This document shows positions 1-36,897 of a stretch of 49,339 nt of DNA, in pieces. The notes below the pieces were generated by a model, which saw nothing but the letters and a program-made list of their open reading frames with translations, was not told the DNA's origin and ran no database searches. Every line of letters begins with the position of its first letter. Positions within the stretch are counted from its first letter, which is position 1. The DNA comes from Clostridia bacterium (GTDB lineage: Bacteria; Bacillota; Clostridia; Oscillospirales; Acutalibacteraceae): positions 1-49,339 of the forward strand of contig JAFQFZ010000002.1 of the NCBI GenBank assembly GCA_017398425.1, given 5' to 3'. The translations under genes were made by a program, and so were the position numbers.

Positions 1-124
1 ATGGATGCAGAAGGACAGGCGTTTGCGTTCGAGTGCAGGGGTGCGCAGAACAGCGGTACAAACGCGCAGATGCCCGTGGTAGAGCAAATCCCGAAGGGAC
101 GGCAAAACCGCCCGTAAACGCCCC

Positions 125-379
125 GTGTGCGCCCACAGAGCCCCATCCCGAGCCGATACCGAGAAAGATACGCAATCCGGCACGGGATGCCTGTATCAGA
201 TCAATGACAACCTTTGGGAAGGCAGCTTTTTCCCAAGACTGCCGAACGGCAAGCGAAAGAAATTCAACGTCTACGCTGAAACGAAAGAGCAGTGCGAAAT
301 CAAACTCGCCGAAATGATCGCACGAGTCAAAGCCGAGATCGCGGAAGAAAAAACAAAACTAAAAGAGAGCGCCGAATAA
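125..379 (+). CDS. Recombinase/integrase-like AP2-type DNA-binding fragment, probably a remnant
   Basis: The 84-residue product has a short basic N-terminus, then a segment with GTGCLYQIND, LWEGSF, NGKRKKFNVYAETKE and a charged helix. This is the look of the AP2-like arm-binding domain of phage integrases and the tails of some clostridial recombinases (family recognition from memory). No catalytic domain is present. The GTG start at 125 has no clear ribosome binding site, and the same frame is open back to a TAG at 80-82. Another frame is open from base 1 to 117, so a frameshifted or decayed larger gene entering from the left is possible. It lies beside the AT-rich retron, which suggests an eroded mobile element. 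It could also be an intact small DNA-binding protein. Confidence 0.4.
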   Translation: MCAHRAPSRADTEKDTQSGTGCLYQINDNLWEGSFFPRLPNGKRKKFNVYAETKEQCEIKLAEMIARVKAEIAEEKTKLKESAE

Positions 380-417
380 GGCGCCCTCAAAATTTGGTTT
401 GCAGTAAACAAAGAAAA

Positions 418-460
418 GCAAAGAGGGCGACTCATAAAAGCCGCCCTCTTTGCTTATTTT
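418..460. terminator. Bidirectional terminator between the remnant gene and the retron RT
   Basis: A 12-bp inverted repeat (418-429 with 442-453, gcaaagagggcg paired with its complement) has a 12-nt loop and is followed by TTATTTT on the plus strand. On the minus strand a T-rich run also follows it. It should end both the rightward gene and the leftward retron transcript, only a few bases past the RT stop codon. Confidence 0.75.
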
Positions 461-461
461 A

Positions 462-1667
462 CTAAAAAGGTAAATCTGTATTATCAGTTGAAGAATTATT
501 TTGAGAGGTTATTACTTGTGGCCAATCTTTATATGTACAAACATCAGATAAATTGCGCTTGTTAAGATAAATTTTTCTTGAATTATACATATCGCCATAA
601 TAATATAACTCTTCTTCATCTTTAGGATCGATAAGAGCAGATTCAATTTCTTCTAAATCGTCGAAAAACAAGTTATTGTTATATGCATCAACCAGTTCTG
701 GAAAATATATGATTTTCTCTGCCGTTGTTGTAATATATTGTTTAATTGAAGATATATAATTGAAATTATTGTCCTTTTCTATAAAGGAAACATATCCTAT
801 TTCTCCAAGGATCTTACCCTTGTTTTTATAATCGCCCGACATCAAACACATGAAAATTTCAGCGCGGATTTTTCTCTTCATCTCTTTAGGAGCCTTTAGT
901 TCGAATTTTTCATCGAGATGGTGTTGAACAATTGTTACACCTGTAATTCGTTTGCGATTTGATGGTGTGTTAAAGTGTGTTTTCCTGTCATTTATAACGA
1001 AACCTTCATTTTCAATAATTTGTTTGAACGCATAATAATATCGCAATAAAAGAGTTTTGTCATCACAAGAAAAATACATGTCATCAGCGTATCTTGTGTA
1101 GATGATGCCTCTTTTTTGACATAAACCTGCAAGTCGGTTATCTAACGTAATGCATACAAGATTTGAAATTGCAGGTGAACAAGGGCTCCCTTGTGGCAAT
1201 TTTGAATCTAATGTGCACAATTTTGTTAGTATAGTAGCTGCAAATTCATTATAGCCCAAGCTTGAAAAAATGTTATATACTTTGTTGGCTGAAATGCTTG
1301 GAAAAAAATCTTTCAAGTCAATTGAGAGACCATATAATGTATAGGCATGATATGCGGCGTTTTGTTTATTTCCAAACGAAGAACCTCTTCTAAATGCCAT
1401 TGACTGATTGGATGGAACAATTTTATTTAAGATATTTTTTAATATCCATTTTTGTACAATACGCAGAGTATACGAGGGAATAAAGATTTCCCGCATATCG
1501 CCGTTCCTCTTAGGTATTTTCTTATTTCTATAATACTTTTCTGTTAAATTAGAAAGACAAAAAAGCAAACGTGTGCTTAATCCAGTTATCTCTGAAAACT
1601 GTTCTATAGTCGAAAAACGAGGCAATCCAAGCGAATTAATTAGTAATGATTGTGATATTTTTCGCAT
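462..1667 (-). CDS. Retron reverse transcriptase
   Basis: The 401-residue product reverse-transcribes the adjacent msd RNA into multicopy single-stranded DNA linked to the msr RNA. Retron hallmarks are visible in order: NAAYH near residue 103, DLKDFFPSI near 117, LPQGSPCSP near 157, catalytic YADD at about 193-196, and RITGVTI near 241 (equivalent of the retron VTG motif). After about residue 320 there is an acidic, Tyr/Asp-rich extension of roughly 80 residues, longer than the roughly 320-residue Eco1 enzyme. Base composition is far more AT-rich than the surrounding genes, so it was probably acquired by transfer. The only ribosome binding site (AAAGGAG, 1684-1678) lies inside the a2 repeat of the ncRNA, 10 nt from the ATG. 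Group II intron and DGR reverse transcriptases are excluded by the NAxxH and VTG-type motifs and by the context. Confidence 0.95.
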   Translation of the reverse strand: MRKISQSLLINSLGLPRFSTIEQFSEITGLSTRLLFCLSNLTEKYYRNKKIPKRNGDMREIFIPSYTLRIVQKWILKNILNKIVPSNQSMAFRRGSSFGNKQNAAYHAYTLYGLSIDLKDFFPSISANKVYNIFSSLGYNEFAATILTKLCTLDSKLPQGSPCSPAISNLVCITLDNRLAGLCQKRGIIYTRYADDMYFSCDDKTLLLRYYYAFKQIIENEGFVINDRKTHFNTPSNRKRITGVTIVQHHLDEKFELKAPKEMKRKIRAEIFMCLMSGDYKNKGKILGEIGYVSFIEKDNNFNYISSIKQYITTTAEKIIYFPELVDAYNNNLFFDDLEEIESALIDPKDEEELYYYGDMYNSRKIYLNKRNLSDVCTYKDWPQVITSQNNSSTDNTDLPF

Positions 1668-1672
1668 AAAAA

Positions 1673-1837
1673 AGTCGCTCCTTTTACCAGAAACTTTTCG
1701 TTAAGTTTAGTTGTCTATTTCACTCGATGTGAGATAGACGGCTAAAGTTAAGGAATCGTGTGGAATCATCCACCAAGGAAGGCGAATCGCCTTCCGAACA
1801 TATTGAAAACAATATGTAATAGCTAAAAGGAGCGACT
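1673..1837 (-). ncRNA. Retron msr-msd noncoding RNA
   Basis: A perfect 14-bp inverted repeat (1824-1837 with 1673-1686) forms the a1/a2 ends. Directly after a1 comes TTAGC, with a candidate branching G at 1823, the same context as in Retron-Eco1. The msr part has a stem-loop with 8-bp stem and UUUU loop (1798-1817), a GC-rich 8-bp stem-loop (1777-1795) and a 5-bp stem-loop (1760-1773). The msd part is a long imperfect hairpin with 23-nt arms (1729-1751 and 1701-1723, 19 matches, 5-nt loop). The RNA begins 2 nt after the effector stop and ends 5 nt before the RT start, so it is cut from the same leftward transcript. Every expected retron RNA element is present in order. Confidence 0.92.
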
Positions 1838-1839
1838 AA

Positions 1840-2706
1840 TTATTTATTTAATTGCTCCTTTAGTATATCACATCTTATTCGATCGTGCAAGAGAGTTTTT
1901 TCAGTTGCTACTGAATTGTTCAACGTTAATTGGATTTTTTGATATCCTTTACCCGAAAGCGAAATAATACTATCGGATTTATTCTGATCAAATCTTGTCA
2001 CTAAAACATTAGTTTTTAATAAATATTTAATGGCAACATTAAACAACTCGTTGTATTTGTTTGTTTGCATTCCTTTGTGATTGAGAAATGCTTTCAAATT
2101 TTTATGTAGTTGTTTTCTGCCAACCGTTTTATAAAAATATACAATTATTGGTATAAAGGCAATATACGCAGAAAGCTCACTGAAATTATTATTCTTATTA
2201 CCATGATGCCTTTTGTGTAGTTTCCTAAAGAGTTTACATAGTGATTCAACCAGTTCTTCTTGGTGATCTGGTTTATAAGTTACCAAATGATCCGGATGAT
2301 TTTTGCAGAGATGTTTAACCGGCCCCATCATAATAAAACTTTTGTCTCTAGAATATTTTTGATTAATTGCTACGACTAATTTCTTTCTAATGTTTTCGTT
2401 TTGAACAAATGCACCTAATTCTACAGCAGACCCCATGCTTTCGCAAATAATACATATAACATCCGCGTTGTCCGCAAGAAAGTTTTCATATTCGAGCAAA
2501 TCGGAACGTTTGTCTCTATTGAGCATTTCCATGAATAAATCTTCGGGGTATAAAATTTGAAATTGTTTTTTAGACAATAGGTTTTTAACACTGTTTCTTA
2601 TATTGTTTTTATCTGCCCCTCCACATAAAAAAATATAGCAAGATTGATTGAATGTTTTACAAAAGACATTTTCATAAATAGAATTATATGTTGAAATGTC
2701 ATCCAT
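1840..2706 (-). CDS. Retron effector: nucleoside deoxyribosyltransferase-like N-glycosidase with C-terminal winged-helix-like domain
   Basis: This 288-residue protein is the likely toxin arm of the retron. The N-terminal half reads as a Rossmann-like NDT domain: YIFLCGG near residue 24, YPEDLF near 53, and ICESMGSAVELGAF near 87-100, carrying the Glu residues of the family's catalytic region. In type II-A retrons this kind of effector is held inactive by the RT-msDNA complex and is released during phage infection (known for Eco1). The C-terminal half (about 175-288) is basic and helix/strand-rich, consistent with the DNA-binding winged helix of the family. It is the first gene of the unit, before the ncRNA and RT. 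Base composition is strongly AT-rich. The start ATG at 2706 has only a weak, distant GAGG upstream. Confidence 0.85.
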   Translation of the reverse strand: MDDISTYNSIYENVFCKTFNQSCYIFLCGGADKNNIRNSVKNLLSKKQFQILYPEDLFMEMLNRDKRSDLLEYENFLADNADVICIICESMGSAVELGAFVQNENIRKKLVVAINQKYSRDKSFIMMGPVKHLCKNHPDHLVTYKPDHQEELVESLCKLFRKLHKRHHGNKNNNFSELSAYIAFIPIIVYFYKTVGRKQLHKNLKAFLNHKGMQTNKYNELFNVAIKYLLKTNVLVTRFDQNKSDSIISLSGKGYQKIQLTLNNSVATEKTLLHDRIRCDILKEQLNK

Positions 2707-2762
2707 GGAAGTTCACATCCTCTTGTAATAAAATTCTCTAAAAAAGATTCAGATGTTTATAC

Positions 2763-2799
2763 AATCAAAGCCGCAAGATTATTCCTTGCGGCTTTGATT
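2763..2799. terminator. Hairpin downstream of tRNA-Pro, probable terminator
   Basis: A perfect 15-bp inverted repeat (2763-2777 with 2785-2799, 7-nt loop) lies 22 bases past the encoded CCA end of tRNA-Pro. The 3' arm is T-containing (GCGGCTTTGATT) but no long T tract follows, so termination may be partial and the retron could receive read-through from the tRNA promoter. Confidence 0.6.
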
Positions 2800-2820
2800 C
2801 TGCGGTCAAAACCGCGAAAA

Positions 2821-2896
2821 TGGTCCGAGTGACAGGGATCGAACCTGCGGCCTGATGGTCCCAAACCACCCGCGCTCCCAGCTGCGCCACACCCGG
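2821..2896 (-). tRNA. tRNA-Pro (anticodon TGG)
   Basis: The 76-nt minus-strand sequence folds as a cloverleaf. The acceptor stem CCGGGTG pairs with CACTCGG (one G-U), the D stem is GCGC/GCGC, the anticodon loop TTTGGGA gives anticodon TGG, and the T arm contains GTTCGATC. The discriminator base is A and the CCA end is encoded. The AT-rich retron lies immediately downstream of the 3' end, a common integration site for mobile DNA. Confidence 0.95.
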
Positions 2897-2900
2897 ATAT

Positions 2901-2981
2901 CTATTCAATTTTTCTTATTTTTGCGTAGAAGTGGGACAAACTGTGGTCAAACTCAAAATCCACGCTTTTTTGAGTTTTCAT
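2901..2981 (-). CDS. Putative 26-residue mini-ORF upstream of tRNA-Pro
   Basis: An ATG at 2981 overlaps the stop of the preceding small ORF as ATGA, and the frame stops 4 nt before the mature tRNA-Pro 5' end. The peptide starts MKTQKSVDFEFDHS and ends AKIRKIE. A 10-bp perfect hairpin (2949-2958 with 2968-2977) lies within it. No function is known to me. It may be a translated coupled peptide, or chance coding in the leader of the tRNA transcript. Confidence 0.25.
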   Translation of the reverse strand: MKTQKSVDFEFDHSLSHFYAKIRKIE

Positions 2982-3124
2982 AAAACCCCGAAAGTCCGCA
3001 CCGTTAAAGGCTTTTCGGGACTTTTGCTTTTTTCAAGCATTTCGTGCCGGGCACGCTCCCAAAGCAAGCGCGCGTCCTGTTGCAACAGCGGTTCAGACTT
3101 CGCAAACAGCTTGCTCGTCTTCAC
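2978..3124 (-). CDS. Putative 48-residue small protein upstream of tRNA-Pro
   Basis: A GTG start at 3124 follows AAGGAG (3143-3138) at 13 nt, rather distant. The product is a charged, probably helical peptide beginning MKTSKLFAKSEPLLQQDARL and ending TVRTFGVL. It is preceded by a near-consensus promoter and an 86-nt 5' leader containing small hairpins. A hairpin (2986-3019) with a short T run overlaps the last codons, so the transcript could instead be a small noncoding RNA. I have an uncertain memory of similar short peptides in other clostridial genomes. No function can be assigned. Confidence 0.35.
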   Translation of the reverse strand: MKTSKLFAKSEPLLQQDARLLWERARHEMLEKSKSPEKPLTVRTFGVL

Positions 3125-3217
3125 CTTGTTGCTGCCACTCCTTATCCCTCGCTGTATCTCGCACTGCGAGCGATCGGGAACGTCCCCAATTGCACCACAC
3201 CTCGATAAATCGAACCC

Positions 3218-3246
3218 AGTATACCGAATTTCTAAAGAGATGTCAA
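3218..3246 (-). promoter_or_regulatory. Strong sigma-A-type promoter driving the mini-ORF/tRNA-Pro transcript
   Basis: On the minus strand, TTGACA (3246-3241), a 17-bp spacer and TATACT (3223-3218) form a near-consensus promoter. Transcription would start near 3211 and run leftward through the two mini-ORFs into tRNA-Pro. It accounts for most of the otherwise gene-poor stretch 2900-3326. Confidence 0.75.
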
Positions 3247-3326
3247 GCCTGTCTCCGAAAACGAAACGGCTGAGCGCGGCATATACTGCATTGTGGGGGA
3301 GTAGGGACAGAAAGGAGGGGAGACCC

Positions 3327-7123: not shown

Positions 7124-7678
7124 ATGGATAAACCGCGTATTGAAGCCGCTGTGCGCGAGCTGCTCGCCGCGATCGGAGAGGATCCCGATCGTCCGGGCTT
7201 GGTGGAAACACCGCGTCGCGTGGCGGATATGTATGAAGAGATTTTCTCGGGATTTGAAGAAGACCCGTCGATGCATTTGAAGGTGTTCGAGGAATCCCCG
7301 AGTGATGATATGGTCATCGTGCGTGACATTCCGCTCCACTCGATGTGTGAGCATCATTTGTTGCCGTTTGTCGGCGTGGCGCACGTAGCGTATATTCCGA
7401 AGAACGGACGCGTGATCGGCTTGTCGAAGCTGGCGCGCATCGTCAACAACTTTGCCCGTCGTCCGCAGTTGCAAGAGCGCCTCACCGCGCAGATCGCTGA
7501 TTTTCTCGAGCGTGAGCTCACACCCGACGGCGTGGCGGTCGTGGTGGAAGCGGAGCACCTGTGCATGACTATGCGCGGCGTGCGTGCGCTCGGTGCCTCC
7601 ACGCAAACGACGGCACTGCGCGGTGTGATGAAGACCGATGAGCGCGATCGGGCGCTGTCGGCGTTGTTGTCCCGTTAA
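7124..7678 (+). CDS. folE: GTP cyclohydrolase I
   Basis: FolE converts GTP to 7,8-dihydroneopterin triphosphate, entering tetrahydrofolate (or queuosine) synthesis. At 184 residues it has the standard type IA length. The zinc ligands are visible as C75 and the following histidines in [11 protein letters not shown] and C147 in [11 protein letters not shown], and the signatures [14 protein letters not shown] and [13 protein letters not shown] are intact. It has its own promoter and a GGGGGCGG-type ribosome binding site. No other folate genes follow, so its neighbours do not settle whether its product goes to folate or to 7-deazaguanine synthesis. The glycosyltransferase starts 15 bases downstream. 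Confidence 0.95.
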
Positions 7679-7692
7679 AGGAGGAGTCAAAG

Positions 7693-8931
7693 ATGGAGAT
7701 CGCGTTGTGGATCGTCGGTGTTCTCACCGCCGTGATCGGTCTTGGGATCCTGTTGGTGCTGCTGTACCAACTGGTGATCGGCATTCACGGCTTTTGGTCA
7801 ATGAAGCCGCGCCGAAAGATCGAGGATAAAGCACACGACTTTGCGGTGATCGTCTGCGCGCGCAACGAGGAGGCGGTCATTGCCGAGCTGCTCGAAAGCC
7901 TCAAAGCACAGAAGTATCCGCGCGAGAAGTTTGAGCTGTTCGTCATCGCGGACAACTGCACCGACCAAACGGCCGAGGTTTCGCGTGAAAGCGGTGCGGT
8001 TGTGTATGAGCGTTTCAACGACAAGGAAGTCGGCAAGGGCTATGCGCTTCGCTGGGCGCTCGAACGCATCCAAGAGGATTACGGCGATCGCTTTGATGCC
8101 GTGACGGTGTTTGATGCGGACAACGTGGCGGATCCTTGCTATCTGTATCACACGAACGAAGCCCTTTGCTCGGGTGCGGATGCGACGCAGGGTTACCGCG
8201 AAACGAAGAATCCGTTCGACAACGCCATCAGCGGATGCTACGCGATCTATTGGTATATGCTCACGCGCTTCTATCATCAGGCGCGCAGTAATGCGGGGTT
8301 GCCTTGTTCGATCGGCGGCACGGGCTTTGCTTTCAAAACCGCGATCATCAAGGAAACGGGATGGGACACCGTCACCTTGACCGAGGACAGCGAGTTCGCT
8401 TCGCGTCGAGCGCTGGACGGTCGCCACATTCAACTGGTGCGCGAAGCCGTGTTCTACGACGAGCAACCCACCGAGTGGGACGTGTCGGTCAAGCAGCGCA
8501 AACGCTGGATGTGCGGCACGATGCAGGAGTCGCGTGTGCTTCGTCGCCCGGCGTGGAAGTCGTTCCGAAACGGCAACAAAAACGCTTTTGACATCTTCAT
8601 GATGATGCTCAGCTTCCCCGCACTCGCGTGGTTGCTCGTATTGATGGTGCTCAGCCTCACAACGTCGATTTTGGCATCGTTTGCATTCCTCGGACCGTGG
8701 TGGTATATCGGCGTCACCTCGGCGGTGTTGTCGACCTTGATCGGCAGTTACCTTTCCATGTTCGTGTTGGCACTTTTGAGCCTGTGCCTCGAAAAGAAGA
8801 AGCTGTCTCCGTTCGGCAAAGCATTGGCATTTTATCCGCTCTTCATGTTCCCAATGATGTTCTACAGCTTTTTGTTCTTGTTCAAAAAGGACATGGTGTG
8901 GGAGCAGATCCGTCACGGAACCCGAAAGTAA
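7693..8931 (+). CDS. Membrane-anchored family 2 glycosyltransferase
   Basis: This 412-residue protein has an N-terminal transmembrane helix (about 5-30), a cytoplasmic GT2 domain and a cluster of C-terminal membrane helices (about 290-400). The catalytic set is complete: DAD at 141-143 (VTVFDADN), TED at 230-232, and QRKRW at 268-272, the Q/RxxRW product-site motif of processive inverting enzymes. This resembles N-acetylglucosaminyl- or beta-glycan synthases, though the polymer cannot be named. The start has AAAGGAGG at good spacing, and the gene probably shares the folE transcript. A long terminator hairpin follows. Confidence 0.88.
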   Translation: MEIALWIVGVLTAVIGLGILLVLLYQLVIGIHGFWSMKPRRKIEDKAHDFAVIVCARNEEAVIAELLESLKAQKYPREKFELFVIADNCTDQTAEVSRESGAVVYERFNDKEVGKGYALRWALERIQEDYGDRFDAVTVFDADNVADPCYLYHTNEALCSGADATQGYRETKNPFDNAISGCYAIYWYMLTRFYHQARSNAGLPCSIGGTGFAFKTAIIKETGWDTVTLTEDSEFASRRALDGRHIQLVREAVFYDEQPTEWDVSVKQRKRWMCGTMQESRVLRRPAWKSFRNGNKNAFDIFMMMLSFPALAWLLVLMVLSLTTSILASFAFLGPWWYIGVTSAVLSTLIGSYLSMFVLALLSLCLEKKKLSPFGKALAFYPLFMFPMMFYSFLFLFKKDMVWEQIRHGTRK

Positions 8932-36623: not shown

Positions 36624-36897
36624 AAAAAACGCCCTCGTCCCACACGATAGGGACGAAGACGAAACGCTCCGCGGTACCACCCTGATTTTTGCTCGAAAAG
36701 CCACTGCTCGAAGCAAACACTCCTGCGGCCGGTAACGGGGCCTGCCGTCAACACCTACTGCGACACGGGGTCGGTTCAGCATTGCCGCTCGAAAGGGAAC
36801 TTCGGTCACACGCGATCCTCCGATCGCTTTCAGCCGTGGCGATCGTCTCTGTGGGGGATGAAGGGGTGCGCTTACTTCCTTTGTCAACGCGTTAATC
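36624..36897 (-). promoter_or_regulatory. T-box riboswitch of pheST
   Basis: The 5' leader contains the invariant T-box sequence AGGGTGGTACCGCG (36684-36671). It is followed by a 12-bp terminator stem (36662-36651 with 36642-36631) and a T6 tract. The AGTA-type stem I element is present, and a TTC codon at 36799-36797, before CCTTTCGAGC, is a candidate Phe specifier. Uncharged tRNA-Phe would stabilise the antiterminator and allow pheST transcription. This explains the 500-base gap between pheS and pyrH. Confidence 0.92.

What the first reader, a model, noticed from the sequence alone, without database searches (positions are those of the whole stretch)
462..2706. Complete retron (effector, ncRNA, RT) in a high-GC clostridial genome
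Three parts lie on one strand in the order NDT-like effector, msr-msd RNA, reverse transcriptase. The RT has NAAYH, YADD and ITG(V) motifs, the RNA has exact a1/a2 repeats, and the effector has the ESMGSAVELG motif. Established knowledge: retrons with NDT-like effectors (type II-A, including Retron-Eco1) protect against phage by abortive infection. Inference: this is a divergent, probably uncharacterised clostridial member.
Basis: partly seen in the sequence, partly recalled or inferred. Interest (0 to 1): 0.92.

Follow-up and report, generated by a model that had tools for sequence, protein, structure and literature searches.

The report
Eco1-type retron beside a tRNA gene
This is an intact-looking anti-phage retron of the same kind as the well-studied E. 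coli retron Eco1, found on foreign-looking DNA beside a tRNA gene in an unnamed bacterium; it is a real but ordinary new member of a known family, with an unexplained extra tail on its reverse transcriptase.

Summary
On the minus strand lie an NDT-like effector (2706-1840), a 165-nt structured RNA (1837-1673) with perfect 14-nt a1/a2 arms, and a reverse transcriptase (1667-462). PADLOC type II-A profiles match both proteins best; both pass NCBIfam's retron St85 cut-offs and match the solved Eco1/Ec86 complex. The effector keeps the glutamate that is mutated in one Eco1 structure. Gene order is that of Eco1. An RNA model built from three loci finds the RNA at the right place in three more loci; it misses Eco1's own RNA. 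In six loci 40 of 55 pairs have a two-sided change. The RT falls in a small clade of NDT retrons beside Eco1's.

Clade traits worth noting: an ~80-residue RT tail seen in 5 loci; Lys where Eco1 needs Tyr51; a close relative on a 3,481-bp contig that reads as a circle. The retron is 32% GC, the rest of the window 58%. The host's taxon, msDNA synthesis and phage defence were not tested.

The parts
1840..2706 (-). NDT-like effector, 288 aa; N-terminal nucleoside deoxyribosyltransferase-like domain with ESMGSAVELG and Glu E96; C-terminal region matching the II-A effector profile to its end
   Evidence: PADLOC NDT_II-A 1e-81, profile 6-271 of 272; NCBIfam NF038232 172 bits, cut-off 100; PDB 7v9x_C 2e-22
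1673..1837 (-). msr-msd ncRNA, 165 nt
   Evidence: fold z -9.5; model R1 and covariation
1824..1837 (-). a1 arm
   Evidence: 14-nt perfect inverted repeat with 1673-1686
1823..1823 (-). predicted 2'-5' branch guanosine, first base after a1 (UUAGC as in Eco1; its role here is inference)
   Evidence: sequence and comparison with the Eco1 RNA
1798..1817 (-). msr stem-loop 1
   Evidence: inverted repeat; 6 of 7 pairs with a two-sided change (helix 2)
1777..1795 (-). msr stem-loop 2, GGAAGGCGAUUCGCCUUCC; counterpart of Eco1 GGAUGUUGUUUCGGCAUCC
   Evidence: helix 4, 100% of cells paired
1697..1755 (-). long msd hairpin, main template of the predicted msDNA
   Evidence: helix 5, 84.6% of cells paired
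1673..1686 (-). a2 arm; it also holds the Shine-Dalgarno-like AAGGAG (1683-1678) of the RT gene
462..1667 (-). retron reverse transcriptase, 401 aa
   Evidence: PADLOC RT_II-A 2.7e-110; NCBIfam NF038233 252 bits, cut-off 235; PDB Ec86 RT 1.6e-52
462..716 (-). C-terminal RT tail, residues 318-401, beyond the stretch matched by the II-A profile; seen in 5 loci
   Evidence: no Pfam match at E up to 5
416..455 (-). terminator-like hairpin just after the RT gene
2763..2799 (-). hairpin between tRNA-Pro and the effector, perhaps the tRNA's terminator
   Evidence: 15-nt perfect inverted repeat; not listed by the terminator scan
2821..2896 (-). tRNA-Pro(TGG); the retron lies on its 3' side

Best explanation
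A complete, probably functional type II-A (Eco1-like) retron that protects by abortive infection. Effector, ncRNA and RT are probably on one transcript. The a1/a2 helix brings the ends of the ncRNA together; the RT binds the msr stem-loops, primes from the 2'-OH of G1823 and copies the msd hairpin into a branched RNA-DNA (msDNA) of roughly 70-90 nt. RT plus msDNA holds the NDT-like effector inactive; phage interference with the msDNA or the complex releases it, and the effector destroys a nucleotide cofactor, most likely NAD+, killing the infected cell. Shown here: the three parts, their order, the RNA structure and its conservation, the conserved Glu, the family. Inferred from Eco1: transcript, branch site, msDNA, complex, NAD+ hydrolysis, defence. 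The trigger is unknown; the ncRNA has no GATC, so the GATC-methylation trigger reported for retrons Asa1 and Squ1 is not expected in that form. The base composition and the place beside tRNA-Pro suggest horizontal acquisition.
For: Profiles: best PADLOC hits of both proteins are type II-A, NCBIfam cut-offs met. Solved homologues: Ec86 RT 1.6e-52, Ec86 effector 2e-22; the 8qbl effector chain has Ala at residue 106 where wild type has Glu, and the window has Glu there (E96), invariant in 8 of 8 effectors aligned. Same order effector-RNA-RT as Eco1 in E. coli. RNA: searches (z -9.5; 0 of 300 shuffles), model R1 hits outside its training set in L155/L180 (56.9 bits), L178 (137.3) and L179 (71.2); 40 of 55 pairs with a change on both sides against 16.3 in shuffles. 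Tree: window in a four-row clade of NDT retrons, 98/97; 100/99 for the group window, L178, L002, L003. Foreign DNA: 31.8% against 57.7% GC. NAD+ hydrolysis by Eco1 filaments: passage of PMC12405507.
Against: No msDNA, toxicity or defence data. Model R1 does not find Eco1's own RNA or that of L007, and L005 only weakly at E 0.02, so the RNAs share the plan but not a close sequence-structure family. The RT has Lys (K49) where Eco1 has Tyr51, whose change to Ala abolishes Eco1 defence (PMC12405507 passage). The same site is Lys in L002 and Thr in L178, which argues for a clade trait rather than decay, but function is not proven. The Pfam NDT-like model (PF15891) scores below its gathering cut-off (23.2 against 30).
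Confidence: 0.93

Rival explanations
1. A retron that makes msDNA but is no longer, or never was, a working defence system: an element decaying after horizontal transfer.
For: Non-aromatic K49 at the Eco1 Y51 site; foreign base composition and a contig edge 461 bp beyond the RT gene.
Against: Both reading frames are open and full length and the a1/a2 arms are perfect; compensatory changes across 6 loci show that the RNA structure has been kept by selection; Lys/Lys/Thr at that site in three separate loci.
Confidence: 0.05
2. Same parts but different chemistry or control: the NDT-like effector cleaves another nucleotide, or acts through its C-terminal part, and the RT tail couples it to a different trigger.
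For: The phmmer match to Eco1's effector covers residues 15-164 of 288 only; the RT tail is clade-specific and matches no Pfam family.
Against: The II-A effector profile covers residues 5-287 of 288; the Glu is conserved.
Confidence: 0.15
3. Not a retron RT: a group II intron or DRT-type reverse transcriptase next to an unrelated gene.
For: Weak matches to group II intron and Drt2/Drt3a models.
Against: Those matches are far under their cut-offs (76 of 300, 44 of 390, 31 of 200 bits) while the retron St85 RT cut-off is met; NAxxH and ITG motifs; ncRNA with a1/a2; effector partner.
Confidence: 0.01

Closest known systems
Retron-Eco1 (Ec86), type II-A, E. coli
   Same: Gene order effector-ncRNA-RT; NDT-like effector with the same Glu; RNA plan a1, stem-loop 1, stem-loop 2 with nearly the same loop (GAUUC for GUUUC), msd hairpin, a2; UUAGC after a1; Shine-Dalgarno-like sequence of the RT inside a2.
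   Different: RT 37.7% identical over 300 aligned residues; ~80-residue RT tail absent from Eco1; K49 and F272 for Tyr51 and His268; RNA model R1 does not match Eco1's RNA.
Tail-bearing relatives L002 (Clostridia MAG), L003/L004 (HGW MAGs), L178 (G783), L179 (G642)
   Same: Same order, RNA found by one model, RT tail
   Different: 39-60% RT identity; I met no name or test of any of them in the sources seen
NDT-effector retrons with overlapping or abutting effector and RT genes (L134, L156, L157, L085, L089, L092)
   Same: Effector matched by the profile, next to a retron-like RT
   Different: No room for an ncRNA between effector and RT; separate RT clade, 100/99. Their PADLOC type was not checked, except that L156 and L157 were found with PDLC02930.

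Membership tests
Retron (any type) | Retron RT with NAxxH, YADD and VTG-type motifs | tested here: met
   NAAYH, YADD, ITGV; NF038233 above cut-off
Retron (any type) | ncRNA with inverted a1/a2 arms and a guanosine after a1 | tested here: met
   that G1823 is the branch point is inference
Retron (any type) | Branched msDNA is made | not testable with these tools
   needs expression
Retron type II-A (NDT effector) | NDT-like effector of the II-A family beside the RT | tested here: met
   PDLC02930 1e-81 over nearly the whole profile; NF038232 172 bits, cut-off 100
Retron type II-A (NDT effector) | RT of the II-A family | tested here: met
   PDLC02941 is the best of 66 PADLOC families, 366 against 255 bits for the next
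Retron type II-A (NDT effector) | Phylogenetic place in or beside the NDT clade | tested here: met
   own clade of NDT retrons, 98/97; its order relative to the Eco1 clade is unresolved, and NDT loci as a whole are not one clade (4 changes)
Retron type II-A (NDT effector) | Glu at the position of Eco1 E106 | tested here: met
   window E96; invariant in 8 of 8
Eco1 RNA family in the narrow sense | One sequence-structure model covers window clade and Eco1 | tested here: not met
   R1 finds no match in L158 (Eco1) or L007 at E up to 1
Retron type II-A (NDT effector) | NAD+-hydrolysing filament, abortive infection | not testable with these tools

The most novel reading that the evidence does not exclude
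A separate lineage of type II-A retrons in which the RT has gained a conserved C-terminal module (YLxK...DxCxYxDWP in the four nearest loci) and lost the aromatic residue that Eco1 needs, so that template handling or effector docking works differently; and which travels as a very small mobile unit, either a ~3.5-kb circle (L178) or a cassette set at tRNA 3' ends.
Probability: 0.25. Interest if true: 0.5.

Novelty: new member of a known kind. Interest (0 to 1): 0.3.

Why it matters
It adds a small clade (six loci with a model-recognised RNA, five of them with an RT tail) to the Eco1 type of retron, in bacteria far from E. coli. The RT tail and the K49 change are specific, testable deviations from the best-studied retron structure. 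The RNA model can be used to look for more members. For technology, a distant Eco1-like RT with its own RNA could be tried as a DNA-writing part.

Tried and rejected
Considered and dropped: (1) Gene order as a difference from Eco1: I first recalled Eco1 as RNA-effector-RT, but the E. coli locus shows effector-RNA-RT, as here. (2) Phage or plasmid carriage of this retron: the viral scan gave 46 relatives, the best-scoring at 36% identity; plasmids 289 records, all under 60% identity and none covering 80% of the RT; phages 17 records, none covering 80% of the effector, the 15 listed matching only its N-terminal half. (3) A direct-repeat att site: no convincing direct repeat flanks the retron in 1-3300. 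(4) The 125-379 (+) frame as an integrase remnant: the resemblance is from memory; Pfam gave only a sub-cut-off hit to another family, E 0.0089. (5) GATC methylation trigger: no GATC in the RNA. (6) Structure prediction of RT tail and effector: tool switched off. (7) Key retron papers (the NAR 2020 classification, Mol Cell 2024, Cell Rep 2024, Nat Microbiol 2022) are not held; what I say of them comes from citing passages or recall. (8) A search for papers on RT C-terminal extensions gave 25 papers, 12 listed, titles and abstract starts only; none is about a tail on type II-A RTs by title, which does not show that it is undescribed.

Full report
WHAT IS THERE. The window is a whole 49,339-bp contig (G000:C44) of an unnamed 1.68-Mb, 70-contig, 79%-complete genome. 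Read on the minus strand: tRNA-Pro(TGG) at 2896-2821, a hairpin with perfect 15-nt arms at 2799-2763, the effector 2706-1840, the ncRNA 1837-1673, the RT 1667-462, and an 18-pair terminator-like hairpin at 455-416. The contig ends 461 bp beyond the RT gene. The retron is 31.8% GC, the window from 2900 on 57.7%. One copy of this RT was found in the genome as held.

PROTEINS. RT: PADLOC RT_II-A 2.7e-110, next family 3.2e-76; NCBIfam retron St85 RT 252 bits, cut-off 235; best solved homologue the Ec86 RT, 1.6e-52. Effector: PADLOC NDT_II-A 1e-81; NCBIfam St85 effector 172 bits, cut-off 100; best solved homologue the Ec86 effector, 2e-22. The effector chain of 8qbl has Ala for Glu at residue 106; the window has Glu (E96) there, invariant in the 8 effectors of alignment A4. 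The Pfam NDT-like model itself scores under its gathering cut-off.

RNA. The a1/a2 arms are 14 nt, perfect; 0 of 300 dinucleotide shuffles of the region reach 14. The region folds far below its shuffles (z -9.5). Its plan matches Eco1: a1, UUAGC, stem-loop 1, stem-loop 2 with GAUUC where Eco1 has GUUUC, msd hairpin, a2. In three loci (window, L002, L003) 22 of 55 predicted pairs have a two-sided change that keeps the pair. A covariance model of these three (R1) was searched over 36 sources: besides its training loci and reverse-strand echoes in them, it found L155 (56.9 bits, 4.7e-12) at the effector-RT gap and L005 weakly at its gap (E 0.02); the rest were at E 0.11 or worse; Eco1 (L158) and L007 were missed. 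Over 19 further sources it found L178 (137.3 bits), L179 (71.2) and L180 (56.9; the same genome as L155), each between effector and RT; what remained was an echo in L178 and two matches at E 0.29 and 0.98. On the 6-row alignment made with the model, 91.5% of cells pair (shuffled 70.3%) and 40 of 55 pairs have a change on both sides (shuffled 16.3; slid versions at most 15). Half of those rows trained the model and the alignment is fitted to it, so the hits outside the training set are the cleaner evidence.

RELATIVES. In the 84,980-species genome collection, scanned by peptide patterns, 442 stretches encode a relative and the best 80 were kept; three are close (54-55% in the best segment: L002, L003, L004), the next 40% or less. 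L003 and L004 are the same over the 281 bases aligned, and I dropped L004 from counts and trees. Among 40 related genomes (own included) 10 have some RT match; the best foreign one is 41% identical over 229 query residues. PADLOC NDT_II-A is found in 4 of 398 genomes of the phylum, own included, at E 1e-10 or better. The clade's RT alignment matches 21 of 391 genomes of the class, own included, at E 1e-30 or better; besides the own one only G783, G642 and G180 score above 250 bits. Of 159 records scanned by script, 25 frames match the effector profile in records with an RT match; after dropping five copies of the window and L004, 19 loci remain.

TREE. For the first tree I took those 19 loci and the 45 best-scoring of 122 other RTs. 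The window sits with L002, L003 and L155, all NDT loci, support 98/97; the NDT label needs 4 changes (shuffled mean 16.5, 0 of 500 as low), so NDT loci cluster but are not one clade; Eco1 and Vibrio L007 lie in a neighbouring clade, the order between these clades unresolved. The program flags unusual composition for L002, L003 and L155 among others, and some long branches elsewhere. A tree of 26 rows of my choice, with L178 and L179, gives window + L178 96/93, adding L002 96/94, adding L003 100/99, and the six-locus clade with L179 and L180 89/95.

CLADE TRAITS. (a) RT tail: residues after YADD are 205, 203 and 210 in window, L002, L003 against 122-146 in nine others measured; L178 (397 aa) and L179 (395 aa) also run on, L180 (337 aa) does not. 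L179's tail is judged by eye and by the class search (query to 381 of 407). A tail profile hit no other frame of 100 aa or more in the 159 records, and Pfam has no match. Whether the tail arose once is open (29% of bootstrap trees). (b) The residue aligned with Eco1 Tyr51 is Lys in window and L002 and Thr in L178, Phe in L003, L179 and L180; of 156 RTs aligned 125 have Phe or Tyr there, and the 31 others include many RTs outside this clade. PMC12405507 says that Y51A abolishes Eco1 defence (passage). (c) The site of the thumb residue His268 of Eco1 is Phe in window, L002 and L178, as in 20 of 156 RTs; His 70, Tyr 42; this is not unusual. (d) A Shine-Dalgarno-like sequence for the RT lies inside a2 in the 8 loci printed, Eco1 included if its RT starts at the 320-aa ATG and not at the start annotated in that record: the a1/a2 helix would hide it, so one transcript may serve either as RT message or as folded ncRNA. 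This last point is inference.

MOBILITY. The cassette lies on the 3' side of tRNA-Pro. In the two same-genus genomes looked at, other genes lie there: in G003 a 208-aa frame after a similar hairpin, in G001 a 355-aa frame about 500 bp away. In G001 a type III-A retron (PRTase_III-A 1.1e-82, RT_III-A 5.5e-142) lies between tRNA-Ser and an integrase-like frame (the integrase call is by eye). The RT loci found in this genus (window, L151, L152, L153) lie within about 310 bp of a tRNA gene, counting the window's from its effector; three of the four are on the tRNA's 3' side. So the site looks like a tRNA-linked exchange spot; no att repeat was found.

MECHANISM. By homology to Eco1, which PMC12405507 describes as forming filamentous complexes and acting by NAD+ hydrolysis (passage), RT and msDNA hold the effector and phage attack releases it. 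PMC12548924 states the general abortive-infection model and an adenine-methyltransferase trigger, with GATC motifs, for retrons Asa1 and Squ1 (passages). The window RNA has no GATC. None of this was tested for this locus. I read no paper whole: PMC12548924, PMC8989520 and PMC12405507 were seen as passages, others as listings.

VERDICT. Observation confirmed, interpretation supported, novelty modest: a new member of type II-A with a clade-specific RT tail.

Noticed in passing
L178:1-3481 (G783:C33): The closest relative found sits on a 3,481-bp contig whose RT frame runs across the contig ends without a missing or repeated base, so it is a circle or a collapsed tandem; it holds effector, ncRNA, RT and a 138-aa frame without a Pfam match (other small frames were not searched), and has no match among plasmids.
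   Followed up: partly
window 1673-1686 and L002, L003, L178, L179, L180, L158, L007: The ribosome-binding-like sequence of the RT gene lies in the a2 arm in the 8 loci printed, so RNA folding and RT translation may exclude each other.
   Followed up: partly
window 1824-1860: The end of the effector gene (AAGGAGC) can pair with a1 (GCTCCTT), a possible competitor of the a1/a2 helix; the fold of a longer piece keeps a1/a2 paired, and the match may only reflect the conserved KEQ peptide.
   Followed up: partly
L152:4048-6499 and 7177-8379 (G001:C56): A type III-A retron (RT and PRTase) beside tRNA-Ser with an integrase-like frame, in a genome of the same genus.
   Followed up: partly
L151:3698-4882 and L153:842-1762: Two more retron-like RTs near tRNA genes in the same genus; L151 matches PADLOC RT_Ec107-like 2.1e-115, L153 was not scanned.
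   Followed up: partly
L003 and L004: The same retron locus appears in MAGs titled Firmicutes and Ignavibacteriae; mis-binning or recent transfer.
   Followed up: no
window 36646-36896: T-box leader on the minus strand, 100.6 bits, gathering score 93.
   Followed up: no
window 125-379: Short frame near the contig edge that resembles an integrase arm-type domain by eye; not supported by Pfam.
   Followed up: partly
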